This document shows positions 3,688 to 32,931 of a stretch of 33,854 bases of DNA, one piece after another. Below the pieces are notes generated by a model. It saw nothing but the letters and a program-made list of their open reading frames with translations. It was not told where the DNA came from and searched no databases. Source of the DNA: an uncultured Roseibacillus sp. (GTDB lineage Bacteria; Verrucomicrobiota; Verrucomicrobiia; Verrucomicrobiales; Akkermansiaceae); assembly GCA_937949965.1 (NCBI GenBank), contig CALFBF010000007.1:1-33854 (forward strand). Reading direction: 5' to 3'. How positions within the stretch are numbered: the stretch's first letter is position 1; every line of letters starts with the position of its first letter. Position numbers and translations under genes: made by a program.

Positions 3688-4668
3688 CTACCTTGTCTTT
3701 GTAACCGCAACAACCACTCCCTCACAATTCATTAGGATTGGTTTTTCCACTTTTACCTGAACTGAACGAGCTTGAAACTGATCCACTACAAGGTCCGCAA
3801 TTTCTTCCGCTAAAGTCTCAATCAGTTTACGAGGGCGAGAAGCAGCTAGTTCTTTGATAGCCTCTGTCACTTGGTAATAGTCAATCGTTCCGGCGAGATC
3901 GTCAGACAAACCAAGAAGCCCATCACGGGTCTCGATCTGGAGACTAATCTTCAAGTCTTGAGACTTCTCTCTCTCCTCATCAGGAACGCCTATGAAAACA
4001 GGAACTCTGAGCTTATTAACTACGATATCTGGTCTCGGCTCGGAAGACACAGGAGCGCAAAAGTCAGGCAAACCACCCACATTAGGTAAAATCATATTCG
4101 GGCCTGCCTGAGCCAATCGATCCACCGGATCATACCCCGAAGTAACCGCAACCGCAGTCAACCCACCTGCCTGAGCGGCGTGGATATCGTGAACCATGTC
4201 TCCAACATAAGCGGTTTCTTCTTGCCTCAATCCGTGATCTTGGACGACCTCTATCATTGTTCGGCGCTTGTCCAAGACACCTCCGTAGATGGCCTCGAAG
4301 AAGGGAGTGAGCCCGAAGGCTTCCCCCTGCCGTTGCAGCGCTTCTTCATTCATACTCGAAAGAACTAACAGACGCAGCCCTTGCCGTTGAGCTTGGCGGA
4401 GAAATTCGCGTGTCGGAGCTAAGGGCTGCACCAGATGCTCCGCCTCCAAAAAGGCTTCTTTGAAAATGACCTCCAACTGTTCTAGCTCGATTTCGGGTAA
4501 AAATTCTTTGTAGAAATCGGGATAAGGAAGTCGGAAGTCACGACGAAATTCCTCCGTAGTAAATGCCTCTTTCCCAAACTTTTCGAAAACAACGTTAGTG
4601 GCAATGAGAGTCGCGGTGAAGTCATCGACCAAGGTGCCAGACCAATCGAGTATTAGGTTTCGAATCAT
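3688..4668 (-). CDS. HAD-family hydrolase fused to dihydroneopterin aldolase (FolB-like)
   Basis: This 326-residue protein has two domains. Residues 1-205 form a HAD-superfamily domain: motif I is DWSGTLVDD (Asp8), motif II is near LVLSSMNEE (about 102-110), Lys134 lies in VLDKRRT, and motif IV is VGDMVHDIHAA (Asp157, Asp161). Motif I has Ser10 where phosphatases usually carry the second Asp. Residues 214-326 match FolB: VPVFIGVPDEERE (Glu region), IDYYQVTEAI, LIETLAEEIADLV and KVEKPI, with a Lys at the usual catalytic place. FolB converts 7,8-dihydroneopterin to 6-hydroxymethyl-dihydropterin in folate synthesis. Dihydroneopterin phosphate must first be dephosphorylated, so the HAD half could supply that step (inference). 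The gene lies 28 bases after dciA on the same strand and is probably cotranscribed with it. Confidence 0.8.
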   Translation of the reverse strand: MIRNLILDWSGTLVDDFTATLIATNVVFEKFGKEAFTTEEFRRDFRLPYPDFYKEFLPEIELEQLEVIFKEAFLEAEHLVQPLAPTREFLRQAQRQGLRLLVLSSMNEEALQRQGEAFGLTPFFEAIYGGVLDKRRTMIEVVQDHGLRQEETAYVGDMVHDIHAAQAGGLTAVAVTSGYDPVDRLAQAGPNMILPNVGGLPDFCAPVSSEPRPDIVVNKLRVPVFIGVPDEEREKSQDLKISLQIETRDGLLGLSDDLAGTIDYYQVTEAIKELAASRPRKLIETLAEEIADLVVDQFQARSVQVKVEKPILMNCEGVVVAVTKTR

Positions 4669-17414: not shown

Positions 17415-19775
17415 CTAAAAAGCGTAGTCGTCTTCTCCGAGAATCTGCACCTCTGTTTCCAACTCCACTTCTCGCTTTTCTTTTGCCTTGGCCTGAATTT
17501 GGGTGATTAGTTCTAGCACTTCCGTGGCCGTTCCCTTCCCTCGATTAACGATAAAGTTTCCGTGCTCTTGAGAAACATCAGCCTTGCCGACCGCAGTTCC
17601 TTTCAAGCCCAGTTCATCAACTAGCTGACCAGCTCCGATTCCCGCCTCTTGGGGATTTTTGAAAATACAACCTGCACTTGCACCTCGGGGCTGAGAGCTT
17701 TTGCGCTTGTCCCGCGACTGATCGAGGAGTTCTTGGATATTCGCAGCACTGGCCTGCGAGTCCCCTTTAAAAACAACCCGAAGGACGTAATTTCTCCGCA
17801 ACTCTGGAACGTTGCGATAGAAGACCTCGACTTCATCCCGAGTTCTTACGCGGCGCTGACCATCTTCTTCTAGCAGCTCCACTTCCACCACTTGGTCAAA
17901 GGTTTCCACTCCCATCGCGCCCGCATTCATACGCAGACCGCCGCCAACATTACCCGGAATGCCCTCCATCCATTCGAAACCACCGATGCCTTCCTTCTGA
18001 GCAAAGCTTGCTAGTTTCTTGAAGCGAACCCCTGCTCCAGCCTCAATGAGACCATCGCCCACTACCTTCACTTCTCCAAACTCTCCTTTGTTAGCAGGGT
18101 GGATAACAGCTCCGCGAATACCCCCATCTCTAACGAGAAGATTCGACCCTCGACCGACCACTCGGACGGGAAAGCCCTCTTCTTTAAAGTAATCCACCGC
18201 AGTGACAAAGCAGGCAAAGCTTTCGGGCTCAACCCAGAACTGGGCGGGACCACCTACGAGCATCGTCGTATGTCGTTTCATCGGTTCGTAGAGCTTCACC
18301 TTCAGGCATTCAGTATCGCACTCGCGCTTGAGTTCTTCGACATAAGTAACATCACGAATGATCCGACGACCAATTTCATGAACATTGCCAGCCCCCAAAG
18401 TGAGGAGAAGGTCGCCTTCCTTGAGAGCATTTCCGACAACGTGATGCGCGTTTTCGAAGTCCTCCAAATAGGACCCTTCAGTTGAGCCCTTACGTAACAT
18501 TGCTTGCACGATGGTCTCTCCACTGATGCCCTCGATAGCATCTTCGCTCGCGGCATAAATAGGAACCACGTATACGAGGTCTGCAAGTTGCAGCGCTTGC
18601 CCAAACTCATCAGCTAAGCGCTGAGTGCGAGAGTAACGGTGAGGTTGGAAGACGACGACGAGACGACTGTTTCCTAGACTCAGTGCGGTCTTGAGAGTGG
18701 CCTCGATCTCGGTTGGGTGATGACCATAGTCATCAATCACGCGAAGTGCATTAGTCCGCCACTTGGTCTCGAAACGACGCTTGGCACCTGCGAAAGTGGA
18801 AAGCGCACGAGCAACGAGTTCGAAACTGGTATCGACCTGATGGGCGAGCACGATGGCTCCTAGTGCATTGAGAACATTATGTCTCCCAGGAATCCCGAGT
18901 TCGACCCGCCCCAACTCCTCCCCTTTCCGGAAGACCGTGAACGCAGTCGTCCCCCGGCCCTCTAAAATATCTCGCGCTACAAAATCATTCTCCTCACCGA
19001 AGCCATAACTAATCGCCTTTTCGCGAGCGCCACAGACGCGGCGAGCTCCTTCATCATCGCCACAGTAGATGATGGACTCAGCCGTTTGGTCCAGCAAGGT
19101 GGAGAAGACAGCATCGATTTCCTCAATCCCGGAGTAAAAGTCGAGATGCTCGGCTTCGACATTGAGCACGATGGCGTATTTCGGGCGATAGAGTTGCAGG
19201 GTGCCATCACTTTCGTCACCCTCGGCCACCATGAGCTCTCCTTCTTCCTCCCAATGGGCATTGGTACCCAAGACCGGAATCTCTGCTCCCACGTAGTGGC
19301 TCGGTTTCTTCCCTCCCTTGCGAAGAATATGGGCACACATCGCCGAAGTCGTCGTCTTACCATGGGTGCCCGAGACAACAACGCCATCCTTACCTCCTAA
19401 GATACCCGTCAGACATTCGGCGCGAAGCAGACAAGGAATACCACCCGCCTCGGCAGCAGCACGGGCTGGGTTCTCAGGACGGATTGCAGAAGAATAAACC
19501 ACGGCATCCACCCCCTCGACAGCCTCCGCAGTATGTGGGCTAGAGAACTCCAGCCCCAATCCCTTGAGGCGTTCCACCTCGCCACTTGTCACCCTATCAG
19601 AGCCGCTCACACGATGCCCCATCTGCAGAAGCAAGCCTGCAAGACCGCTCATCCCTGAGCCCGCCACCCCGATCAAATGCACCCGCGCCGGATTATCCCG
19701 GTCTAAAAATCGTTCCGTCCAATCTGCCATCAGTGCGGTGAGTGTCGGAAACTCCCGCCCCAGCCTCAAGGCCAT
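17415..19775 (-). CDS. murC-murB: UDP-MurNAc-L-alanine ligase / UDP-GlcNAc-enolpyruvate reductase fusion (MurC-MurB)
   Basis: This 786-residue protein joins two peptidoglycan precursor enzymes. Residues 30-476 are MurC: IGVAGSGMSGLA (nucleotide loop), SGTHGKTTTSAM (ATP loop, 136-146), NVEAEHLDFY and DDYGHHPTEI. Residues about 490-785 are MurB: GRGSNLLVRDGG (541-552), EGIPGNVGGGLRMNAGA (604-620), SAGCIFKNP (700-708) and the final ELETEVQILG with the expected catalytic Glu. The proton-donor position in SAGCIFKNP is Cys703 rather than the Ser of E. coli MurB. The start at 19775 gives a 15-residue lead; Met16 is an alternative. It is divergent from the 294-residue gene, 110 bases away. Confidence 0.95.
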   Translation of the reverse strand: MALRLGREFPTLTALMADWTERFLDRDNPARVHLIGVAGSGMSGLAGLLLQMGHRVSGSDRVTSGEVERLKGLGLEFSSPHTAEAVEGVDAVVYSSAIRPENPARAAAEAGGIPCLLRAECLTGILGGKDGVVVSGTHGKTTTSAMCAHILRKGGKKPSHYVGAEIPVLGTNAHWEEEGELMVAEGDESDGTLQLYRPKYAIVLNVEAEHLDFYSGIEEIDAVFSTLLDQTAESIIYCGDDEGARRVCGAREKAISYGFGEENDFVARDILEGRGTTAFTVFRKGEELGRVELGIPGRHNVLNALGAIVLAHQVDTSFELVARALSTFAGAKRRFETKWRTNALRVIDDYGHHPTEIEATLKTALSLGNSRLVVVFQPHRYSRTQRLADEFGQALQLADLVYVVPIYAASEDAIEGISGETIVQAMLRKGSTEGSYLEDFENAHHVVGNALKEGDLLLTLGAGNVHEIGRRIIRDVTYVEELKRECDTECLKVKLYEPMKRHTTMLVGGPAQFWVEPESFACFVTAVDYFKEEGFPVRVVGRGSNLLVRDGGIRGAVIHPANKGEFGEVKVVGDGLIEAGAGVRFKKLASFAQKEGIGGFEWMEGIPGNVGGGLRMNAGAMGVETFDQVVEVELLEEDGQRRVRTRDEVEVFYRNVPELRRNYVLRVVFKGDSQASAANIQELLDQSRDKRKSSQPRGASAGCIFKNPQEAGIGAGQLVDELGLKGTAVGKADVSQEHGNFIVNRGKGTATEVLELITQIQAKAKEKREVELETEVQILGEDDYAF

Positions 19776-19885: not shown

Positions 19886-20770
19886 ATGAGACCGACTCCT
19901 GATTCGCTTTCCCCAAAATTTGTTGAGCTCGTCAAAACGAGCAGATTCAGCAGCCTCCCTGACTTACAAAAAACCAAATTTAAAAATGGCAGCAGCAGTC
20001 AAGCAGCAGCTACCGGAATGACCGATCTTGAGATCATTCACCATCTCGGTAAACCTATCCCTGACTCCATATACTCGCTTCGTAAAAAGAAATTTCCCAG
20101 AAAGAATTCCACCCAAAAGAACGAACTCGTAGAATCTATAATCTCCTCTGAAGATAGACTCGCTATCACTAAGGAGCGCTGTCGTCACCTCCTCCATTAC
20201 TGTTCGCACCCGACTCCCTCGTGTCGCGACATGGCTGCACAATATCTTTGGAAATTTAGCGCTTCACAGTCTCTTCATGATTTTTCTCGAAAATTACTAG
20301 ATACCGCCCTCTCACCTCCACAGCCTTCACTTTACCATTTACGTTGCTACGTCCAGCTTTTTGGAATCAGCGAGGAACGGTTAGAAAAAATCCACTCCTT
20401 TCGCGACAAATACCTCGGTGAAAAGCTCGTCGACTGGCTCATCCCTCAAGCAAGCACCACCAGATCTCTCCCGCCAGCTCTCCAAACAATCTTGCGAGAG
20501 ATCGTTTGCAACTACCCTTTCCCAGTAAAACGTAAAGTAGCCAACGAAGACTCTCTCAATTGGAGGGTATTCTCCCAACTTCTCTCTCGAGGTCTCCCCC
20601 TACACTCACTCGAAGCCATCGCGGTGACAGATTACCAAACCTTTCTCAAAGCGGCCTCCTCTTCGGAAAAAAGCGAAACGCAAATCTTCCTAAGACGAAT
20701 CGCCAGACTTTCGCCGGATCTCGAAAGGAGGGTCCTCAACCTAGTAGGAACTCACTCCCTACTCGACTGA
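19886..20770 (+). CDS. Unknown, mostly helical protein convergent with the DUF262-WYL operon
   Basis: I do not recognise a family. The 294-residue protein is polar and predicted mostly alpha-helical by residue pattern. Segments such as KERCRHLLHYCSHPTPS, LRCYVQLFGISEERLEKIHSF and ALQTILREIVCNYPFP suggest a helical-repeat-like fold. There is no signal peptide, TM segment or obvious catalytic motif. The N-terminal 80 residues are basic and Ser/Lys-rich. Its 3' end overlaps the 3' end of the WYL regulator gene by 19 bases, tail to tail. The shared palindrome upstream of it and of the DUF262 operon suggests common regulation, so it may belong to the same cassette. The gene could equally be an independent lineage-specific protein. 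Confidence 0.65.
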   Translation: MRPTPDSLSPKFVELVKTSRFSSLPDLQKTKFKNGSSSQAAATGMTDLEIIHHLGKPIPDSIYSLRKKKFPRKNSTQKNELVESIISSEDRLAITKERCRHLLHYCSHPTPSCRDMAAQYLWKFSASQSLHDFSRKLLDTALSPPQPSLYHLRCYVQLFGISEERLEKIHSFRDKYLGEKLVDWLIPQASTTRSLPPALQTILREIVCNYPFPVKRKVANEDSLNWRVFSQLLSRGLPLHSLEAIAVTDYQTFLKAASSSEKSETQIFLRRIARLSPDLERRVLNLVGTHSLLD

Positions 20771-21729
20771 TAATTAGCCAACGCCGTCTTCAGATCAGCT
20801 AAACATTGTTCGCGAAAAGGTAGCGGTTTTAGAATCTCTACATCTGGTCCAAATCGTCTTACCCACAACATCAATTCAGTGAGGCCTTTCACCTTTACCT
20901 GCAAAACGCACTCACTCCCATCGTCACTCAGAACCTTTTGGTAATTTGCTATCGGGCGTTCAGCCACATGGTTCCGAGCATAACCTGTTACCCTCATCTC
21001 TACCACGGTCTCTGCTTCCCCCTCTCCTAACAGCCATATCCCCTCCTGCTCATCCTGCACCCACTTGGCAATCTGTTCCTCGCTAGGACCTCCTCCTTTC
21101 GCTGATAATGAGACCAGATTCTTCATTCGGCTCAGATGATAAACTCGCCGCTCACCGTTGTAATAACAATACCCCATCAGATACCAAAGTCCGTCACTCT
21201 CCCGAATTTGCAGCGGTAAAACCTCACGGTTAATTTCGAGCTCTGACTCCAGATTACGATAATCAAAACTCATGGCACCACGACATAGGATACTCCGTCC
21301 AAGAAGTCCGATCCTTCGCAAATCATCCTCCGTGGTCTGAGGATGATTGAGCCGAACCATTCGATGTTCCGAATAGAAATCATTCACTCCCAATTCGGCT
21401 TGCTTCAAAAGACATTCTCGCAATCTCACTCCTAGATCCGAGTCTAATGTCCCATAGCGGCTATCGATGAATCCACCGGCTAAAAAAAACACTCCGAAGA
21501 CTCGCAGGTCGGTAGGATCTCGCTCTCCACGCGAAGCCTTACGCATCCAAAACCCCCTCTGATCACTCTCGATGGCAAACCGTCCTTGGGTACGGAGTTT
21601 GTCAATATCCCGCCGAATTGTTCGCTCATCCACCTCAAAGTCTACCGCCGCCTGACGTGCAGTAAACCGTTCTCCTCCTTGCAAACGAAGCAAGATCAGC
21701 TTTCTCCGATTATCGCGTTGGTTCATCAC
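20752..21729 (-). CDS. WYL-domain transcriptional regulator
   Basis: The 325-residue protein has an N-terminal helix-turn-helix (about 21-47, FTARQAAVDFEVDERTIRRDI). A WYL domain follows (about 145-205) with LPLQIRESDGLWYLMGYCYY, where Trp182-Tyr183-Leu184 give the name, and RVYHLSRMKNL. A WCX-type C-terminal domain spans about 240-320. WYL proteins sense ligands, often nucleotides or nucleic acids, and many, such as BrxR and CapW, repress phage-defence operons. Its start overlaps the 3' end of the DUF262 gene by 20 bases, so it is the last gene of the same operon and probably translated by coupling. Met1 and Met2 are adjacent alternative starts. Autoregulation through nearby palindromes is inferred. 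Confidence 0.9.
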   Translation of the reverse strand: MMNQRDNRRKLILLRLQGGERFTARQAAVDFEVDERTIRRDIDKLRTQGRFAIESDQRGFWMRKASRGERDPTDLRVFGVFFLAGGFIDSRYGTLDSDLGVRLRECLLKQAELGVNDFYSEHRMVRLNHPQTTEDDLRRIGLLGRSILCRGAMSFDYRNLESELEINREVLPLQIRESDGLWYLMGYCYYNGERRVYHLSRMKNLVSLSAKGGGPSEEQIAKWVQDEQEGIWLLGEGEAETVVEMRVTGYARNHVAERPIANYQKVLSDDGSECVLQVKVKGLTELMLWVRRFGPDVEILKPLPFREQCLADLKTALANYQSSRE

Positions 21730-23053
21730 TTTCTAACAGTTTCATGGCCTCATCGAAGTCCCCTTCCTTCCAATCCTTATCTAAACCAATCCTCCCCGAA
21801 TTATTTGTCTTCCGATCTTCGTTTGCGGCCAACCAATTTTTTACCCCCTCTCGAACCTCTTCCACCGAAACCTTCCCATCCTCCCTTTCGATACTATCCA
21901 CTGTTGCCTCCCAGTTCCAGATTGCCTCATTCTCCTTGCCCCAGTAGCGGCCTCGATCCCAGGACGCACGGTGATTGTTAGCATTATCCAGTCGATGAGC
22001 AGCCATCCACCACACGAGATTCTTTACAATCGTTCTAACAAGTTCATCACCTGCGGTTTCATCTTGTTCTGTGACCGCAATCCTCATCATTAAGGCTCCA
22101 TAACGTTTATCCCAGAAATAAGGGTCTTCACTGATACGCTCTTTGAAAAGCTTCTGATATCGGTCAAGTCTCAAGATCCATTTACCCTTGCCTTGCGGAT
22201 CTTCCGCATCTACTAAATTCTCTGCGAATTCTTTTTTCGAACCCACTAATTTCTCTTCTTTGATGCTATCATAAGCGGATTGAAAGTGCTCATACTGCTC
22301 TTTCATACTTCCCTTCCTGCCTCGATTATTGGCTGCTGCAATCATGCTATAACGCCATTCGTGAGTTTGCGAACAAGCTTGGAAAACCGCGAGTTCATCA
22401 TTCGAAGCAGCTTTAGGATTAATCATCAAAAAGTTCCTTACCAAATCCTTAAACGACATTTCGTGCTTCGAACCATTCATTCGTCGAAAGACTCTTTCCG
22501 GGATCATGTTGGAAGGCAGCTCGACCTTAACAAGTTGAAGCTTTTCCCAGTTATTGCGGTTGGTCCAGTCTTCCAGATTGAGATCTTCCACCCGCTCTCT
22601 CAGCTTGTTATAATTCTTTAAAATAGAATTCTCTCGTTGGCTCAATGAGCAATAGCGTCCGAGCATCACCTGATGATAAGCCATCTGATCCCAATGGTTC
22701 TCAAATGATAGCCGAGGCAAGCCCGTATCCGGATTGAGACAAAAGTTCCGGAAAACATCGCCCGCAAGCTTATCCTTCCACTTTTCCGCCAGCGCCATGA
22801 ACAGAAGACTCAGCGTGGTGAGCCGTTGCTGTCCATCAATCACTTCATAATCACCTTCGACTGATTTTACTAGAGTGATAGTGCCAAAGTAATGAGAAAT
22901 GCCTTCCTTAAACGCATCTCGAACATCATTAAAGAGAGTCTCAACATGGCTCTCCGACCAATTGTATCGCCGTTGGTAAAGAGGAATACGGAAGTCAGTT
23001 TCGCCATTCGTGAAACCAATCAGAGTTGTGGGAAGGTTGCTTTGTGAAAACAT
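21710..23053 (-). CDS. DUF262 (GmrS-like) protein lacking the DUF1524 nuclease domain
   Basis: The 447-residue protein has the DUF262 core: FRIPLYQRRYNWSESHVETL (21-40), HYFGTITLV, and the nucleotide-site motif VIDGQQRLTTLSLLF (71-85). RRMNGSKHEMSFKDLVRNFLM matches the later DUF262 block. In GmrS and BrxU-type enzymes the DGQQR motif supports NTP hydrolysis during restriction of modified DNA. The C-terminal part (about 340-447) carries no EHI.P or LGNL motif, so no HNH nuclease is visible. It lies only six bases after the stop of the DUF262-DUF1524 gene and overlaps the WYL gene. It could be a specificity or regulatory partner of the upstream nuclease. No frameshift is evident, so the missing nuclease domain looks like a genuine architecture. 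Confidence 0.88.
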   Translation of the reverse strand: MFSQSNLPTTLIGFTNGETDFRIPLYQRRYNWSESHVETLFNDVRDAFKEGISHYFGTITLVKSVEGDYEVIDGQQRLTTLSLLFMALAEKWKDKLAGDVFRNFCLNPDTGLPRLSFENHWDQMAYHQVMLGRYCSLSQRENSILKNYNKLRERVEDLNLEDWTNRNNWEKLQLVKVELPSNMIPERVFRRMNGSKHEMSFKDLVRNFLMINPKAASNDELAVFQACSQTHEWRYSMIAAANNRGRKGSMKEQYEHFQSAYDSIKEEKLVGSKKEFAENLVDAEDPQGKGKWILRLDRYQKLFKERISEDPYFWDKRYGALMMRIAVTEQDETAGDELVRTIVKNLVWWMAAHRLDNANNHRASWDRGRYWGKENEAIWNWEATVDSIEREDGKVSVEEVREGVKNWLAANEDRKTNNSGRIGLDKDWKEGDFDEAMKLLESDEPTR

Positions 23054-23059
23054 ATTTAA

Positions 23060-24832
23060 TTAGAGGGCAAGGGCTTTGACAAGTTCTTTGGCTAAATAAG
23101 TAGTTCGCTTCTCGATGTATTGAGACCAACATCGATCCGGTGGTGGATTCTCTCCTGAGCAGATTCTAAAATCTTCCTCCTCAGCAATACGTCGAGTCAT
23201 CACGAAGTTTGAAGTGCGGTAAGCTTTTTCTTTTTCTAAAGGAGAACGATTCCCCACTGAGCTATTCAAGCGTCCCCCTAACAGGGTTAAATTTCCTAGC
23301 GTGTGACAGCGCTCGCCCCTCACCTCCCCCCATTCCGATGGACGTCCTTCCTCACCAGGACGAGGATTCTGTGGGACAATGTGTTCCAAAGTTGGCCTGC
23401 CCCCGACGTATTGAATCGCAGTGTCCAAATTCCCCGCAGTGAGTTTGTCTTCGTAGACCTCCAAGAGAGCGATCAAGCGTCCTTGCTTCGCGTAAACATC
23501 TACATACTCAACGGAATCCTCTTCCGTCGAATCCTCCTCAGAGCCGTCAGGCGCTTTTTCTCCCTTAGGTTCTTTCTCTTGTTCAGAATTTTCCTCATCT
23601 TCTTCGTCACTGGAAACACCCCTTAGTTGCTTTTCTAATTCGTCGGAGAAGTTAACATGCTTTTCATCCAAAAAATTTTTAAAACACTCTATGGTTGGAG
23701 GCTTATCGTCATCATTTTTCAAAAGCCCTAACCAATCCCCCAGCTGCACTTTTGTATTAAGAAAATTATTAATAAGAATAGCCTTAATAAACCCCACGAA
23801 AGTTTCTCTCTCTCTTTCCCCAAATTTCGTTGAACGCAAAAACATTTCAACTGCCAGTGGAGTAGCATTCCTGGTCAGGGCACGCGCTAGCTTAGCGAGC
23901 ACCGACGACATCTCACTATCGACTCCATCTATTCGCCCGCACCTCACGGCGACCCAAGCCTCGGCATGTCTCCACATTTCGGAGACCAATTTTTCAAGTT
24001 GCTGAATCGAGCCACCCTCTTTCCGTAGGACTTCTTCGAACTTCTTCACTAACTTCGACTCCGGAGCCCGGGCGGCCTTATCTTTATCCGACTCTGACCA
24101 TTTTCGTAGGATCAGAAAATCTTGCAAAAATTCAAGTCGTAGCGAATCACGCTCACTCTCAAAGAGCTCTGTCACATTTTGCCAAATTTCGTTGAGGCGC
24201 CTTCGGTAATCAACTTGGCTTCCCTCGGGTTGCAGCTCTCTTGCGCGCATGAAGAGAGCATTTTGAACCAAATCAAAAGACGATAAGTTCAAGCCTTCGA
24301 CATTCATTTTCTCGAAAACAGTCTGGGAACAATCACTGATTCCATTCGGAGATTCTTGCTCATTACTGTAAAGGGTAACTAACGAAACCTTCACGCGACG
24401 AAGAAGCTCTTCATTCAGCTGAATTTTCTTTTCTCCAAAAATCTTGTAGTTCCGCCAAACCGCCCCTTGTTGATCGCTCTCTGGTTTAAGATAATCAGTC
24501 GCAATGTCCGTCGCGCCATCCGTCGATTGCGGAATCAGTTTCTTACAGTAGTTGCTCTTTCCTTGACCCATCGCATCAAGCATAAGAAAGAGACTCGTTA
24601 GGCGCTGTTGGCCATCGATCACGTCTTGGGTCTTGGGCTCTCCTTTAGGAGCCTGAACTACCAAATTACCAAGGTAATGAATCGCGGATGGGCTAGCCTC
24701 CAACTCTTGGAAATCCTCCACCAAATTGTGGCAAAGTTCTTCGCTCCAACCATAGGGCCTTTGATAGAGAGGGATTCGGTAGGTAACTTCTCTCGCTAGA
24801 AGAGTTGAGAGGTCGATTAATTCAGCAGTCAT
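23060..24832 (-). CDS. DUF262-DUF1524 GmrSD-like type IV restriction nuclease
   Basis: I choose the ATG at 24832 (590 residues), because MTAELIDLSTLLAREVTYRI is where DUF262 proteins begin; the frame stays open to 25003. The DUF262 domain contains RIPLYQRPYGWS (19-30), HYLGNLVV (52-59) and VIDGQQRLTSLF (71-82). FEKMNVEGLNLSSFDLVQN (173-191) is the second block. An acidic linker (about 408-442, runs of Glu/Asp/Ser) leads to a DUF1524 HNH nuclease: EHIVPQ with His484, CHTLGNLTLL with His510 and Asn514, then LNSSVGNRSPLEKEKAY. This is the fused GmrSD/BrxU arrangement, which cuts modified foreign DNA in an NTP-dependent way. It is the first gene of the operon with the second DUF262 gene and the WYL regulator. 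Confidence 0.92.
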   Translation of the reverse strand: MTAELIDLSTLLAREVTYRIPLYQRPYGWSEELCHNLVEDFQELEASPSAIHYLGNLVVQAPKGEPKTQDVIDGQQRLTSLFLMLDAMGQGKSNYCKKLIPQSTDGATDIATDYLKPESDQQGAVWRNYKIFGEKKIQLNEELLRRVKVSLVTLYSNEQESPNGISDCSQTVFEKMNVEGLNLSSFDLVQNALFMRARELQPEGSQVDYRRRLNEIWQNVTELFESERDSLRLEFLQDFLILRKWSESDKDKAARAPESKLVKKFEEVLRKEGGSIQQLEKLVSEMWRHAEAWVAVRCGRIDGVDSEMSSVLAKLARALTRNATPLAVEMFLRSTKFGERERETFVGFIKAILINNFLNTKVQLGDWLGLLKNDDDKPPTIECFKNFLDEKHVNFSDELEKQLRGVSSDEEDEENSEQEKEPKGEKAPDGSEEDSTEEDSVEYVDVYAKQGRLIALLEVYEDKLTAGNLDTAIQYVGGRPTLEHIVPQNPRPGEEGRPSEWGEVRGERCHTLGNLTLLGGRLNSSVGNRSPLEKEKAYRTSNFVMTRRIAEEEDFRICSGENPPPDRCWSQYIEKRTTYLAKELVKALAL

Positions 24833-24855
24833 TTTATCAGATAAAAAAAGGCTAT

Positions 24856-24884
24856 TATGTAATTTTTTTATTACTAGAAAACAA
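24856..24884 (-). promoter_or_regulatory. Probable promoter of the DUF262-DUF262-WYL operon
   Basis: On the minus strand TTGTTT (24879-24884) and TACATA (24856-24861) are 17 bases apart, ending 23 bases before the chosen start at 24832. The region is strongly AT-rich. A small palindrome overlaps the -10 side, which would suit repression. Confidence 0.45.
24859..24874. promoter_or_regulatory. Small palindrome overlapping the promoter
   Basis: GTAAT (24859-24863) and ATTAC (24870-24874) are perfect reverse complements with six T bases between them. It covers the -10 edge and spacer of the proposed promoter. The arms are short and AT-rich, so chance is possible. Confidence 0.3.
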
Positions 24885-24905
24885 CTCAAGCATAGCCACC
24901 CTACC

Positions 24906-24922
24906 CGGACAAAAGATGTCCG
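24906..24922 (-). promoter_or_regulatory. 17-nt palindrome, copy 2 (upstream of the DUF262 operon)
   Basis: Read on the minus strand this is CGGACATCTTTTGTCCG: the same 5-base arms, the same 7-base spacer and the same TTTT at the end of the spacer as the copy at 19845-19861. It lies 21 bases upstream of the proposed -35 box and 73 bases before the start codon. It is also about 60 bases after the yjbQ stop, but no T-run follows, so a terminator role is less likely than an operator role. Confidence 0.55.
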
Positions 24923-24983
24923 CACCAAGATTCCCTGACACGATTCAACTCTGCCATACTGAGTCCGGAGACGCTCTAATTCC

Positions 24984-26956: not shown

Positions 26957-29860
26957 TTAGCGTGGAGAGATGATCAGACGATAATAACGCTCCTCATCGA
27001 CGAAGGAAGCAACCTCCGTCATCACTTCCTCGAAGCCATCGATAGGCACTTGAGAGGAAAGAAAAACTTGATCCGGAAGAGCAACCCAAGTGCTCAAATC
27101 AGTCGAGGTTTCCAAGGACACAGTCACATCATCGGCGGCCAAAACTCGACGGTAGCGAAGAATGAAAGAATCACGATCAACACTATCAACACGTAAAACA
27201 TCATCTGTCACATCGTTCCCGAAGGAGTATGCCCGAATCTCTTCTTCTGAATCCCCTGCTAACGATTCCGTGAAAATTGCACTCGGAGAACCACCCACAG
27301 ACTGACTCGCTCGCCAAGTGGACGGTAGGGCAGGATCGAGAATAAGATCAGGTCGAATTCGGGTCAAAGAATGGCCTAGGCCATCTGCAGCTGCAGGCCA
27401 AAAACGACTATCATTGTAGGCGAAGGCTTCAATCGTGCTGCCATCTGCCGCAGCCAATGCGATCTGCTCCCCATCATTCGAAAGATTCCCCACGTAATCT
27501 GCTGGGGTCAAGATAAGTGACGAACCCGCTGCCAAAGTGCTTCCATTCGGAAAGAGGTAATCAATCCCTGCCGCAAAGCGCAGACCTGCTAGATTCAACT
27601 CACTACTTGAGATATTGGTTAGTTCAATGAACTCACTGGCTTCCGCAATCCCAAGCGGATTGTAATGAATTTCGGAAATCACTAGGTTACCAGCCGTTGC
27701 TGCTAAGATAGCACTCGGTTCGAACACCGCGATGACATTGCCGGCAATATCGAAAGGAATATTAATTTCTTCGTCAGTCTCTCCGGCAGCTAAACCGTCC
27801 CAGCGAACAAATTCGAAACCGGGCTTAGGTTCTGCTTTGAGACGAAGTGGAACGCCTCGGAAATAGGGTCCAGCTTCGCGGCCTGGAGTGACCCGAAATT
27901 GATGCACCCGAACATCTCCTCGTGAAGAATCGTTACTCGAAATATTGAGTTCAATCATCTCAGGGAGAGAAAAACGAGTCTGCATAGCTTCAAGAACACC
28001 CCGGTATCGGACATTAACAAAAGTCCGAATCTCATCAACATATCCAAGCCATTGCGGCATATTGAGAGCTATCAGATCAATACGCTCAGCAGCAACTCTC
28101 GGTCTACCGTCAATCACATCTTCTACAGTAAAACCATTATTAGCTAAATCGTTCGTATAATAATCAATTGTTCTAGGCATCATAGGAGCCATGGTTGTTT
28201 CGATGGCATCGATTTTTTCAATCCACCTCTCGGGGTAAGCAAAGAGATTAAAAAAGGCGGCATTAGCATGCACAATCTCAGACCACAAAACGTCGCCCGG
28301 TTGAACGCGAGGAAAACCAACATTAATATTAAGATCATCAAAAGGAGCAGTGACACGTGCGAAACTCCCCCTTTCACCCAGACTTAAATCGTAGTCATGT
28401 AAAAGGTAATTCCTAAAACCAAGACGATCGGCAAACCCAAACCATGTATTCCCCTCACTTCCTATCCCGCCTAATCTTAAAAAACTATCCACCAAATGAG
28501 TATCAAACGTAATTAGACTTCGAAGCTCATTAACCGCATCATCAGCTCGATGATCCACCCCTAAAAAGAAATGATCAAATCTACCGCCAAGACCTACCTG
28601 AACAACTTCCTCATTACTGATATATTGCCTTGCGAACTCAGAATCATCATCTTCACGGAGATTCATATGACCAAGAAAACGACCATTTAAATAAAGAACA
28701 ACAGGACGAAATGCTTCTTCCTCTAGCTCAACAATATTGTCTTGCCCTAACATATGAGAATGCACACCGTCACGCATTCTGGCTTCTGAGAAATCTTGGC
28801 TTGAATTGCGTAATAATACTCGTTCAAAGCGACGTTCTTCTTTCTCTGGGAAAAACTGATGATTTAAGGAGCTTGGGCCCAGTCTCGCCCGTGCAAAAAT
28901 TTTACCATTGAGAGGAGGGCGGCGACCACTTGTTCGCCCAGAGCTTTCAAACTCAGCGTATTGACTAACTTCCAGGCGGCCATCGTTCTCTAAAAAATCA
29001 AACCGAACCCGCCCATCAATCATGAATCGCGTATAAGGGTCACTAAAATCTAGTCCACCTATTACTTCTTCTTGATCACTCGTCAAAATAACAACTGGGA
29101 CACCGGGCATTTCTTCAAAGAGAAAACTCCTCATTGTTGATTCGCTCACCCCAACTCCTCGTGAGGAAATCGCACGAAGAACAGTCGTTTCAGTAATGGT
29201 AATTGCTGTGCTGTAGACAGGAGAATCCGTATCCGGTTGACTACCATCGGTTGTGAAATGAATGACATCTCCCTCTTCATCAGGCGCTAAAACCACTTCC
29301 ACTGCATCCGTGTAAAATCCTGATTCTTGATTTACCGAAGGTCGTCCGACCAGTGACACCAATGCGGACTCCTCTACATTGGCAGCCCCTATGGTGACAT
29401 CTGGAAAGAAACCATAACTCCCATCCGCAAATCGGGCATACGAAACATCAGTCGTTTGACGGGGAAAACTTAAACTCGAAATCTCTTCCCCTGATGGGGA
29501 AGTTAAAACCAAATCTTCTCCTCCTGCTGACAAGCGAAAGTCGGGACGACCTCCGCCACTGCCATCACAGATCACAACCAGAAAACCATTAGCTGGAATG
29601 GTTGTTCCTGCTGGAAACTGCCATCGCAGTGGATTCCCGAGGCCATCCGAGAAAAAGTATCCACTCAGATCGATGAGATCTGGAGTCAGATTCAAAAACT
29701 CTACTACGTCTGGAGAGTCAGTCGTTCCCGCAGGCGAAAAGGCCGTTTCATTACTCGCTAAAACTTCATTGAAGACAATTTCTCCAGACTCCACTTGAGC
29801 TGACAACACATTAGAAAAAAATATTATCGTGCAAAATATATCAACAACCCAAATCTTCAT
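26957..29860 (-). CDS. Secreted multidomain protein with lamin-tail and CotH-like domains (paralogue A)
   Basis: The 967-residue protein starts with a signal peptide (1-21, cleavage near VLSA-QVES). Domains by motif are: a lamin-tail domain (about 24-160, GEIVFNEVLASN, VVEFLNLT, DLSGYFFSD); a chitobiase/hexosaminidase C-terminal-like module (about 173-248, HFTTDGSQPDTDSPVYS); a CotH-like region (about 255-640, with RFERVLLRNSSQD and VVLYLNGRFLGHMNLREDD); a beta-repeat (about 650-715, PGFEFVRWDG); a second lamin-tail domain (about 720-835, LVISEIHYNP); and a C-terminal segment with LETSTDLSTW and a YYRL end. These domains are typical of extracellular structural or adhesive proteins of Verrucomicrobia and Planctomycetes. 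Kinase activity of the CotH part is not shown. Paralogue B lies 55 bases upstream and has the same length. Confidence 0.85.
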   Translation of the reverse strand: MKIWVVDIFCTIIFFSNVLSAQVESGEIVFNEVLASNETAFSPAGTTDSPDVVEFLNLTPDLIDLSGYFFSDGLGNPLRWQFPAGTTIPANGFLVVICDGSGGGRPDFRLSAGGEDLVLTSPSGEEISSLSFPRQTTDVSYARFADGSYGFFPDVTIGAANVEESALVSLVGRPSVNQESGFYTDAVEVVLAPDEEGDVIHFTTDGSQPDTDSPVYSTAITITETTVLRAISSRGVGVSESTMRSFLFEEMPGVPVVILTSDQEEVIGGLDFSDPYTRFMIDGRVRFDFLENDGRLEVSQYAEFESSGRTSGRRPPLNGKIFARARLGPSSLNHQFFPEKEERRFERVLLRNSSQDFSEARMRDGVHSHMLGQDNIVELEEEAFRPVVLYLNGRFLGHMNLREDDDSEFARQYISNEEVVQVGLGGRFDHFFLGVDHRADDAVNELRSLITFDTHLVDSFLRLGGIGSEGNTWFGFADRLGFRNYLLHDYDLSLGERGSFARVTAPFDDLNINVGFPRVQPGDVLWSEIVHANAAFFNLFAYPERWIEKIDAIETTMAPMMPRTIDYYTNDLANNGFTVEDVIDGRPRVAAERIDLIALNMPQWLGYVDEIRTFVNVRYRGVLEAMQTRFSLPEMIELNISSNDSSRGDVRVHQFRVTPGREAGPYFRGVPLRLKAEPKPGFEFVRWDGLAAGETDEEINIPFDIAGNVIAVFEPSAILAATAGNLVISEIHYNPLGIAEASEFIELTNISSSELNLAGLRFAAGIDYLFPNGSTLAAGSSLILTPADYVGNLSNDGEQIALAAADGSTIEAFAYNDSRFWPAAADGLGHSLTRIRPDLILDPALPSTWRASQSVGGSPSAIFTESLAGDSEEEIRAYSFGNDVTDDVLRVDSVDRDSFILRYRRVLAADDVTVSLETSTDLSTWVALPDQVFLSSQVPIDGFEEVMTEVASFVDEERYYRLIISPR
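27285..27916 (-). repeat. Near-identical internal tract shared with paralogue B (copy A)
   Basis: This stretch aligns without gaps to 30247-30878 (offset 2962). Reading by eye I count about 18 mismatches in 632 bases, with a core of about 270 bases (27469-27740) showing one. It encodes the beta-repeat and second lamin-tail domain (residues about 650-857). Flanking sequence diverges much more. Confidence 0.85.
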
Positions 29861-29915: not shown

Positions 29916-32819
29916 TCAACGTGGATTCACGATTAAGCGATAGTAACGCTCTTCCTCTGCAATAGGTATTACCTCTGTCTCTACGTCCTCAAAACCATCC
30001 ACTGGCACTTGGCGGGACAAAAAAGCCTGATCTGGTAGCGGAAACCAAGTAATCAAATCAGTCGAAGTTTCCAACAAAGCGACAGCATCGTCAGCTCCTG
30101 AAACACGCTGAAAACGGAGACTGAATGAATTCTCTCCTTCTAGACGGGTTACTCGAAGAAGATCTTCGGTAGAGTCTTCCCCAAAATAATACGATCTGAT
30201 CTCTTCTGCAGAGTTCCCCACCAATGATAAAGAAGATATCGTTAAAGGAGAACCACCCGCAGATTGACTCGCTCGCCAAGTGGATGGTAGGGCAGGATCG
30301 AGAATAAGATCGGGTCGAATTCGGGTCAAAGAATGGCCTAGGCCATCTGCAGCTGCAGGCCAAAAACGACTATCATTGTAGGCAAAGGCTTCAATCGTGC
30401 TACCATCTGCCGCAACCAATGCGATCTGCTCTCCATCATTCGAAAGATTCCCCACGTAATCTGCTGGGGTCAAGATAAGTGACGAACCCGCTGCCAAAGT
30501 GCTTCCATTCGGAAAGAGGTAATCAATCCCTGCCGCAAAGCGCAGACCTGCTAGATTCAACTCACTACTTGAAATATTGGTTAGTTCAATGAACTCACTG
30601 GCTTCCGCAATCCCAAGCGGATTGTAATGAATTTCGGAAATCACTAGGTTACCAGCCGTTGCTGCTAAGATAGCACTCGGTTCGAACACCGCGATGACAT
30701 TGCCTGCAATATCGAAAGGAATATTAATTTCTTCGTCAGTCTCTCCGGCAGCTAAACCGTCCCAGCGAACAAATTCGAAACCGGGTTTAGGTTCTGCTTT
30801 GAGACGGAGTGGAACACCTCGGAAATAGGGTCCAACTTCACGACCTGGAGTCACTCGAAATTGATGCACCCGAACATCACCTTGCGATGAATCACTACTT
30901 GCGATATTGAGATCAATTAAGTCCGGCAAAGAAAAACGAGTCTGCATGGCCTCAAGAACGCCATTGTAACGAACATTCACAAAGATTCGCATCTCATCAA
31001 CGTATCCGAGCCATTGAGGCATATCGAGAGCCACTAACCTAAAACGTTCAATTCTTTCTCTATCCAAACCATTGATTACATCTTCAACTGTCAAACCATT
31101 ACCAGCCAAATCATTCACATAATAATCAATTGTGGCCGGCATTACAGGAGCCATAGCAGCCTCGATGGCATCAATTTTTTCAATCCATCTCTCGGGATAA
31201 GCAAAGAGATTAAAGAAAGCCGCGTTGGCCTGAATAATTTCAGACCAGAGAACATCTCCAGGTTCGGTAGGAGGTCTCCCAAAACTAAAGAAAAGATCAT
31301 CGTAAGGAGCATCAAAATTTTCAAAAGTTCCCCCTTCTCCAAGGCTCAAATCATAGTCATGTAATAGGTAATTTCTAAAATTAGGGCGATCGGCGAAATC
31401 AAACCAAGTATTTCCCTCACTTAATCTTGCGCTTCCCCTTAGGAGACCATCCACAAATTGAGTATCAAAGGTTAGGAAGGTTTTCATTTCTTCCAAAGCA
31501 GTATCAGACCGATTATCGACTCCGAAACCGTAGTAATCAGCAACCCAACCAAAACCTTCTTCTATAATCTCGGCGTCAGATATGTATTGCCGCGCAAATT
31601 CAGCATCGTCATCTTCACGAATGTTCATGTGTCCGACAAAACGACCATTTAGGTAAACCACCACAGGTCGGAACCCCTCTTCCTCTAACTCAACAATATC
31701 ATCCTGCCCGAGCATATAAGAAAATATCCCGTCACGCATTCTCGCTTCTGTATGATCTTGACTGGTATTACGCAGTAGAATCCGCTCAAAACGACGTTCT
31801 TCTTTCTCCGGGAAGAATTGATGATTCAAAGAACTTGGACCAAGTCTGGCCCTCGCAAAAATCTTACCATTTAAGGGAGGGATATCGGAACTTGATCTTC
31901 CTGAACTTTCAAACTCGGCATATTGACTAATCTCAAGCCGGCCATCATCTTCTAAAAAATCAAACCGGATTCGACCATCAATTATAAATCGAGTATAAGG
32001 TCGAAAACGGTTTCCTGGTTCAGCAGTCTCTTGATCACTCGTCAAAATCACAACCGGAAGCGCAGGCACTTCTTCAAATAGAAAACTCCTCATCGTTGAT
32101 TCGCTCACTTCACCCCCACGTGAGGAAATCGCACGAAGAACAGTTGTTTCCGTGATGGTAACCGCTGCGCTATAGACAGGAGAGCTGGTATCCGGCTGAC
32201 TACCATCTATTGTGAAGTGAATGATATCTCCCTCTTCATCAGGCTCTAAAACGACTTCCACTGCATCTGTGTAAAATCCTGACTCTTGATTCACTGAAGG
32301 TCGCCCGACTAGTGACGCCAATGCTGTCCCCCCAGCATTGGCGCCCCCTATGGTAACGTCCGGGAAGAAACCATAACTCCCATCCGTAAATCGGGCATAC
32401 GAAACGTCAGTCGCCTGACGGGGAAAACTTAACCTTGAAATCTCCACCCCTGACGGGGAACTTAAAATCAAATCTTCTCCCCCCGCTGACAAGCGAAAGT
32501 CAGGACGATCTCCGCCACTGCCATCACAGATCACGACTAGAAATCCATTCGCAGGAATGACCGTTCCAGCGGGGAACGGCCAACGCAGTGGATTTGCAAA
32601 GTCATCCGAGAAAAAATATCCACTCAAATCGATGGAATCTGGAGTCAGATTCAAAAACTCGACTACGTCTGGAGAATTAGTCGTTCCAGCAGGAGAAAAA
32701 GCCGTTTCATTACTCGCTAAAACTTCATTGAAGACAATTTCTCCAGATTCTACTTGAGCCATTAACACCCCAGAAAAAAGAGCCAAAACAAAAACCATGT
32801 AATTACATATAATTCTCAT
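29916..32819 (-). CDS. Secreted multidomain protein with lamin-tail and CotH-like domains (paralogue B)
   Basis: I choose the ATG at 32819, which gives 967 residues, the same as paralogue A, and a normal signal peptide (MRIICNYMVFVLALFSGVLMA); the frame is open to an ATG at 32870, which would add 17 hydrophilic residues. Domain order equals paralogue A: lamin-tail, chitobiase-like module, CotH-like region (VVVYLNGRFVGHMNIREDD), beta-repeat, second lamin-tail, and a C-terminal segment ending YYRLIVNPR. The CotH region has diverged most, for example around residues 420-530. The two genes are tandem on the same strand, which indicates duplication. The protein is expected outside the cytoplasm; its ligand is unknown. 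Homoserine dehydrogenase diverges from it 112 bases away. Confidence 0.85.
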   Translation of the reverse strand: MRIICNYMVFVLALFSGVLMAQVESGEIVFNEVLASNETAFSPAGTTNSPDVVEFLNLTPDSIDLSGYFFSDDFANPLRWPFPAGTVIPANGFLVVICDGSGGDRPDFRLSAGGEDLILSSPSGVEISRLSFPRQATDVSYARFTDGSYGFFPDVTIGGANAGGTALASLVGRPSVNQESGFYTDAVEVVLEPDEEGDIIHFTIDGSQPDTSSPVYSAAVTITETTVLRAISSRGGEVSESTMRSFLFEEVPALPVVILTSDQETAEPGNRFRPYTRFIIDGRIRFDFLEDDGRLEISQYAEFESSGRSSSDIPPLNGKIFARARLGPSSLNHQFFPEKEERRFERILLRNTSQDHTEARMRDGIFSYMLGQDDIVELEEEGFRPVVVYLNGRFVGHMNIREDDDAEFARQYISDAEIIEEGFGWVADYYGFGVDNRSDTALEEMKTFLTFDTQFVDGLLRGSARLSEGNTWFDFADRPNFRNYLLHDYDLSLGEGGTFENFDAPYDDLFFSFGRPPTEPGDVLWSEIIQANAAFFNLFAYPERWIEKIDAIEAAMAPVMPATIDYYVNDLAGNGLTVEDVINGLDRERIERFRLVALDMPQWLGYVDEMRIFVNVRYNGVLEAMQTRFSLPDLIDLNIASSDSSQGDVRVHQFRVTPGREVGPYFRGVPLRLKAEPKPGFEFVRWDGLAAGETDEEINIPFDIAGNVIAVFEPSAILAATAGNLVISEIHYNPLGIAEASEFIELTNISSSELNLAGLRFAAGIDYLFPNGSTLAAGSSLILTPADYVGNLSNDGEQIALVAADGSTIEAFAYNDSRFWPAAADGLGHSLTRIRPDLILDPALPSTWRASQSAGGSPLTISSLSLVGNSAEEIRSYYFGEDSTEDLLRVTRLEGENSFSLRFQRVSGADDAVALLETSTDLITWFPLPDQAFLSRQVPVDGFEDVETEVIPIAEEERYYRLIVNPR
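30247..30878 (-). repeat. Near-identical internal tract shared with paralogue A (copy B)
   Basis: Partner of the tract at 27285-27916, with the same length and no gaps. It encodes the same beta-repeat and second lamin-tail region. The contrast between this tract and its diverged flanks is the signature of gene conversion or strong domain-specific constraint. Confidence 0.85.
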
Positions 32820-32847
32820 TGAATTGATAAATTGCTCGCATTCACCG

Positions 32848-32867
32848 TTCGAGTCCAGCTTAAATTT
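32848..32867 (-). promoter_or_regulatory. Conserved leader element of paralogue B
   Basis: On the minus strand AAATTTAAGCTGGACTCGAA ends 29 bases before the chosen start at 32819. It differs from the paralogue A element at two of 20 positions. The matching distance supports the chosen start. Confidence 0.4.
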
Positions 32868-32931
32868 CATTTTAAAAAAAACTCATCATCCAAACTTTCC
32901 CTTTTGACCACTAAGCGCTAAACGCCCTTCC

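What the first reader, a model, noticed from the sequence alone, without database searches (positions are those of the whole stretch)
21710..24832. Tandem DUF262 pair: one with an HNH nuclease domain, one without
The first gene is a fused GmrSD/BrxU-like protein (VIDGQQRLTSLF and an EHIVPQ...LGNLTLL nuclease). Six bases later comes a second DUF262 protein with its own VIDGQQRLTTLSLLF motif but no nuclease motifs. Classical GmrS/GmrD is split into one DUF262 and one DUF1524 protein; here there are two DUF262 ATPase-like parts and one nuclease. This suggests a heteromeric restriction complex in which the second protein senses or regulates. I infer defence against phage or modified DNA.
Basis: partly seen in the sequence, partly recalled or inferred. 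Interest (0 to 1): 0.72.

Follow-up and report, generated by a model that had tools for sequence, protein, structure and literature searches.

The report
Two-protein GmrSD-like restriction system variant
Two neighbouring bacterial genes look like a two-part enzyme that cuts chemically modified phage DNA: one protein carries the DNA-cutting domain, and its partner carries only the nucleotide-binding sensor domain, joined to a tail not seen in the known two-part versions.

Summary
On the minus strand, P0001 (23060-24832, 590 aa) carries GmrSD_N/DUF262 plus GmrSD_C/DUF1524. Six bases later, P0002 (21710-23053, 447 aa) carries an intact DUF262 and no nuclease. P0002 keeps all three DUF262 motifs (QR, DGQQR, FxxxN), so it does not look like a decayed copy. 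It also missed that this layout has two published precedents: TgvAB and GrwAB, type IV restriction systems that need both proteins. I found at least 11 TgvAB-like and 12 GrwAB-like pairs in the window's phylum. The window pair is neither: its gene order is GrwAB-like, P0001 is closest to single-chain GmrSD, and the P0002 tail (about 211-447) matches neither the DUF7834 tail of TgvA-like partners nor the long tail of GrwB-like partners. No full-length P0002 relative turned up in about 640 related genomes. Most likely it is a two-protein modification-dependent restriction enzyme under WYL control, a new variant of a known and recently named kind. That it works as a heteromer, and that it restricts phage, is inference.

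The parts
23060..24832 (-). P0001, 590 aa: fused GmrSD-type protein (DUF262 + helical middle + DUF1524 His-Me nuclease)
24251..24805 (-). DUF262/GmrSD_N domain of P0001 (QR, DGQQR 73-77, FxxxN 173-177)
23504..23620 (-). acidic, low-confidence stretch before the nuclease (residues 405-443, 18 D/E of 39; pLDDT < 50 at 410-440)
23165..23506 (-). DUF1524/GmrSD_C nuclease domain of P0001 (H484, N514, N523)
21710..23053 (-). P0002, 447 aa: second DUF262 protein without a nuclease domain
22424..23008 (-). DUF262/GmrSD_N domain of P0002 (QR, DGQQR 73-77, FxxxN 189-193)
21713..22423 (-). C-terminal region of P0002 (211-447): no family match above a cut-off, predicted helical at low confidence; residues to about 277 resemble the region after DUF262 in DndI
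20752..21729 (-). P0003, 325 aa: HTH_11 + WYL + WCX regulator; start overlaps P0002 stop (17 bases from the ATG at 21726)
24833..24983 (-). intergenic region upstream of P0001, likely promoter/operator; holds GTAAT-AAAAA-ATTAC-type inverted repeat; no sigma-70 consensus match
   Evidence: function is inference

Best explanation
The locus is a two-protein GmrSD-like type IV (modification-dependent) restriction system with its own WYL regulator. Shown here: P0001 has a complete DUF262 NTPase-type domain, a helical middle and a complete His-Me nuclease; P0002 has a complete DUF262 domain and a helical tail and no nuclease; the three genes lie head to tail with a 6-base gap and an overlap. Inferred: the two proteins form a heteromer; the DUF262 domains bind nucleotide and read a modified base (such as sugar-modified hydroxymethylcytosine) on invading DNA; nucleotide turnover by both releases the P0001 nuclease; P0003 keeps the operon low until needed.
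For: Domains and motifs complete in both proteins. Models: P0001 aligns over its length to DndI 9jfl_A (VIA Z 20.3, rmsd 8.5, 490 residues), SspE 7drr_A (Z 19.1, rmsd 19.0, 502) and BrxU 7p9k_A (Z 12.1, rmsd 16.4, 403); P0002 residues 4-277 align to DndI 9jfl_B (Z 19.1, rmsd 4.9, 257 residues) and 1-196 to SspE 7drs_A (Z 17.1, rmsd 3.4, 196). Same layout as TgvAB and GrwAB, where both genes and both DGQQR motifs are needed. At least 23 tandem DUF262 pairs with one nuclease found in the same phylum. WYL regulators are known beside type IV restriction genes: 37 of 210 BrxR-linked systems, PMC9122601. GC3 of the block is 0.465-0.485 against 0.53-0.61 for most neighbouring core genes, and none of the four block genes lies beside the flanking genes in three same-genus genomes, as for an accessory defence block.
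Against: No full-length relative of P0002 in 388 phylum and 260 family genomes, so conserved pairing of this exact partner is not shown. P0001 is closest to single-chain GmrSD, which works alone in published cases. No complex could be modelled. No modified-DNA target or phage activity tested.
Confidence: 0.6

Rival explanations
1. P0001 is a self-sufficient single-chain GmrSD enzyme; P0002 is only an accessory, for example one that blunts phage inhibitors or dampens the nuclease.
For: P0001 matches single-chain GmrSD proteins over its whole length (residues 1-588, E 1e-37) better than TgvB-like or GrwA-like proteins; the quick tree places its DUF262 among single-chain ones, on a long branch with modest support.
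Against: Tight coupling of the genes, and both proteins needed in the two studied pairs.
Confidence: 0.2
2. Two unrelated DUF262 defence genes that happen to be neighbours in a defence block; P0002 acts with another effector or alone, as nuclease-less DUF262 proteins of Menshen, Dazbog or PD-T4-2 do.
For: No conserved pairing of this P0002; nuclease-less DUF262 proteins in other systems are described in PMC10952713.
Against: Six-base spacing, same strand, no other effector gene recognised in the block, and 23 or more tandem pairs in the phylum.
Confidence: 0.1
3. P0002 is a truncated, decaying copy of a fused GmrSD gene.
For: It lacks the nuclease, and its DUF262 resembles that of fused proteins.
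Against: Intact frame; all invariant DUF262 residues kept at about 20% overall identity; not a recent duplicate of P0001 (42% over 74 residues); no nuclease remnant downstream, where the WYL gene begins inside P0002.
Confidence: 0.06
4. A phosphorothioate-sensing SspE/DndI-type restriction protein pair.
For: The best solved-structure matches are DndI and SspE.
Against: No DndC match at E <= 0.01 in this genome, which is 90.6% complete; no dnd/ssp-like gene was recognised among the window ORFs read.
Confidence: 0.04

Closest known systems
GrwAB (V. cholerae WASA lineage, PMC12137116)
   Same: Two DUF262 proteins; the nuclease-bearing one (GrwA) is encoded first, the nuclease-less one (GrwB) second; QR, DGQQR and FxxxN in both.
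   Different: GrwB has a long multi-domain C-terminus; second proteins of GrwAB-like pairs in this phylum have 650-900 aa, P0002 has 447 and its tail shows no similarity to theirs. P0001 is closer to single-chain GmrSD than to GrwA-like proteins.
TgvAB (V. cholerae VPI-2, PMC11411939)
   Same: One DUF262+DUF1524 protein and one DUF262-only protein without nuclease.
   Different: Gene order reversed (tgvA, the nuclease-less one, comes first); TgvA-like partners here carry DUF7834, P0002 does not; not embedded in a type I RM cluster, and has a WYL gene instead.
Single-chain GmrSD / Eco94GmrSD / BrxU
   Same: P0001 has the same domain layout and catalytic residues over its full length.
   Different: A second, nuclease-less DUF262 gene is attached; acidic stretch before the nuclease of P0001.
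SspE and DndI
   Same: Best solved folds for both proteins.
   Different: No DndC homologue found in the genome.
BrxR/CapW-type WYL regulators of defence systems (PMC9122601)
   Same: P0003 has HTH + WYL + WCX and sits in the same operon-like block as a type IV restriction gene.
   Different: P0003 is last in the block, not upstream; relationship to BrxR itself was not tested.

Membership tests
[quoted passage not shown]
   Both Pfam models over their cut-offs; residues 24-25, 73-77, 173-177, H484, N514, N523
[quoted passage not shown]
   needs biochemistry
GmrSD family (P0002) | DUF262 domain with the three motifs | tested here: met
   GmrSD_N E 2.6e-30; motifs
GmrSD family (P0002) | DUF1524 nuclease domain | tested here: not met
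   no GmrSD_C match, none with a phylum-built HMM, no EHI/GNL motif
TgvAB-like pair | nuclease-less gene first, nuclease gene second | tested here: not met
   P0001 (nuclease) is first
TgvAB-like pair | partner carries C-terminal DUF7834 (inferred from TgvAB-like pairs here, one of them between hsdS and hsdR as in V. cholerae; TgvA itself was not scanned) | tested here: not met
   PF25202 found in 6 of 6 scanned TgvA-like proteins, not in P0002; hhalign of P0002 tail to this group 0.2%
GrwAB-like pair | nuclease gene first, nuclease-less gene second | tested here: met
GrwAB-like pair | second protein with extended GrwB-type C-terminus (group taken from phylum pairs of the same order; GrwB itself not compared) | tested here: not met
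   447 aa against 650-900 aa; hhalign of tail 0.1%
Two-protein GmrSD-like systems in the broad sense | both proteins required for defence | not testable with these tools
   needs deletion of each gene
SspE/DndI phosphorothioate-sensing systems | phosphorothioation genes in the same genome | tested here: not met
   no DndC match at E <= 0.01; draft genome of 90.6% completeness
WYL-domain defence regulators (BrxR type) | HTH + WYL + WCX, beside a defence system | tested here: met
   WYL-type regulation of this operon not tested

The most novel reading that the evidence does not exclude
A third, independently assembled type of two-protein GmrSD-like restriction system: a single-chain-type GmrSD enzyme that recruited a short nuclease-less DUF262 partner with a new tail, controlled by a WYL regulator in the same transcript. 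It would mean that pairing a GmrSD nuclease with a second DUF262 protein evolved several times.
Probability: 0.4. Interest if true: 0.5.

Novelty: new variant of a known kind. Interest (0 to 1): 0.4.

Why it matters
Why some GmrSD enzymes need a second, nuclease-less DUF262 partner is stated as open in the TgvAB and GrwAB papers. A pair whose partner tail is unrelated to both known partner types, next to an enzyme of the single-chain type, lets one ask what the second DUF262 domain itself contributes. The survey also shows that pairs of both published layouts are widespread in this phylum.

Tried and rejected
Close-relative scans of P0002 and P0001 in genome contigs and of P0002 in viral contigs gave nothing. 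Searching the P0002 tail alone in plasmids gave only chance matches, E >= 1. A DUF1524 remnant in P0002: MAFFT aligned H353 with the nuclease histidine column, but the surrounding residues do not fit and no HMM matches; taken as an alignment artefact. A conserved WYL link was not seen: a P0003-based WYL profile matched no ORF in the loci examined up, and the five other P0003 relatives in the phylum sample are only 25-28% identical; their neighbours were not examined. A clean empty insertion site was not found: the two flanking genes are far apart or on different contigs in same-genus genomes. The DUF262 tree is a quick tree with long branches for both window proteins; I do not rely on their exact place. 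The fold of the P0002 tail beyond about residue 277 was not resolved (pLDDT mostly under 50).

Full report
What is there. On the minus strand the window holds P0001 (23060-24832, 590 aa), a 6-base gap, P0002 (21710-23053, 447 aa), and P0003 (20752-21729, 325 aa), whose start lies inside the end of P0002. Pfam finds GmrSD_N and GmrSD_C in P0001, GmrSD_N only in P0002 (above cut-off), and HTH_11, WYL and WCX in P0003. PADLOC models for DUF262 defence proteins (HEC-06, Orf5, SspE) match both P0001 and P0002. These are the only two GmrSD_N proteins in the 2.73 Mb draft genome.

Is P0002 intact? In an alignment of 33 proteins at about 20% identity the invariant residues P24, Q27, R28, W32, D43, G57, D73, G74, Q75, Q76, R77, F189 and N193 are all present in P0002. 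The DUF262 part of its AlphaFold model is mostly at pLDDT about 90 or above, with dips around residues 91-100 and 131-140, and its first 277 residues fit DndI (Z 19.1, rmsd 4.9, 257 residues) and, for 1-196, SspE (Z 17.1, rmsd 3.4, 196) well above unrelated folds. The tail is predicted helical at low confidence. P0002 is neither a recent copy of P0001 nor followed by a nuclease remnant.

P0001. Nuclease residues H484, N514 and N523 are present, the model contains the strand-strand-helix of a His-Me nuclease (480-526) and fits DndI, SspE and BrxU over most of its length. A 39-residue acidic stretch precedes the nuclease; of the 77 proteins compared only one other (L095, at another position) has as acidic a stretch.

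Relatives. In 388 genomes of the phylum, 151 carry GmrSD_N at E <= 1e-6. Reading the surrounding DNA showed two recurrent tandem layouts. Layout A: a 464-610 aa nuclease-less protein followed by a nuclease-bearing one (L063-L069, L071, L090, L095, L105; in L071 only a short second frame is left; the plasmid locus L114 is of this kind too). The six first proteins scanned all carry DUF7834 at their C-terminus. In L063, from a genome of the window's own genus, the pair lies between hsdS and hsdR, as tgvAB does in V. cholerae; I therefore take layout A as TgvAB-like. Layout B: a nuclease-bearing protein followed by a 650-900 aa nuclease-less one (L070, L082-L085, L088, L089, L093, L094, L096, L097, L099), the order described for GrwAB, whose second protein also has an extended tail; I take it as GrwAB-like. 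TgvA and GrwB themselves were not compared, so both names are inference.

Where the window pair fits. Its order is that of layout B, its partner size that of layout A. Profile comparison puts P0001 with single-chain GmrSD (residues 1-588, E 1e-37) ahead of layout A (residues 8-212) and B (16-270); the P0002 tail matches none of the groups (0.1-1.1% probability). P0002 has no full-length relative in 388 phylum and 260 family genomes, nor among plasmids and phages. So the pair is a layout of its own, for now seen once.

How it likely works. TgvAB and GrwAB need both proteins, the DGQQR motif of each, and the nuclease residues of one (PMC11411939; PMC12137116). They act on phages with modified bases. 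By that precedent P0001 is the effector nuclease and P0002 a second nucleotide-driven sensing or gating subunit. This is inference. The closest enzyme kin of P0001 act alone, so an accessory role of P0002 is the main rival. A phosphorothioate-sensing role is unlikely, since no DndC was found.

Context. The block has lower GC3 than most neighbouring core genes, and none of its four genes (the three above and orf 19886-20770) lies beside the flanking genes in three same-genus genomes, in keeping with an acquired defence block. WYL regulators beside type IV restriction genes are known (PMC9122601). No other locus examined up to one search had a gene matching the P0003-based WYL profile.

Verdict. 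Observation confirmed; interpretation partly supported. The architecture is known since 2024-2025; this locus adds a variant with an unrelated partner tail and a WYL gene. Moderate interest.

Noticed in passing
window 26957-29860 and 29916-32870, minus strand: Two large neighbouring genes (967 and 984 aa, lamin-tail/CotH-like by eye) share a long nearly identical stretch in their C-terminal halves, as after recent gene conversion or duplication.
   Followed up: no
window 17415-19775, minus strand: MurC and MurB are fused in one 786 aa protein (Pfam); kept in same-genus genomes at 77-85% identity.
   Followed up: partly
window 19886-20770, plus strand: 294 aa protein with no Pfam match over the cut-off and no PHROGs match, tail to tail with the WYL gene; not found beside the flanking genes in same-genus genomes. 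May belong to the same accessory block.
   Followed up: partly
window 3688-4668, minus strand: Looks by eye like a HAD-type phosphatase fused to a FolB-like (dihydroneopterin aldolase) domain.
   Followed up: no
L063 1403-11694: In a genome of the same genus a TgvAB-like pair lies between hsdS and hsdR of a type I RM cluster, as in V. cholerae VPI-2.
   Followed up: yes
L067 4342-9570: Three DUF262 genes in a row on one strand: nuclease-bearing, nuclease-less, nuclease-bearing.
   Followed up: no
P0001 residues 405-443 (window 23504-23620): Strongly acidic stretch (18 D/E of 39) just before the nuclease domain, low model confidence; could be a flexible or autoinhibitory linker.
   Followed up: partly
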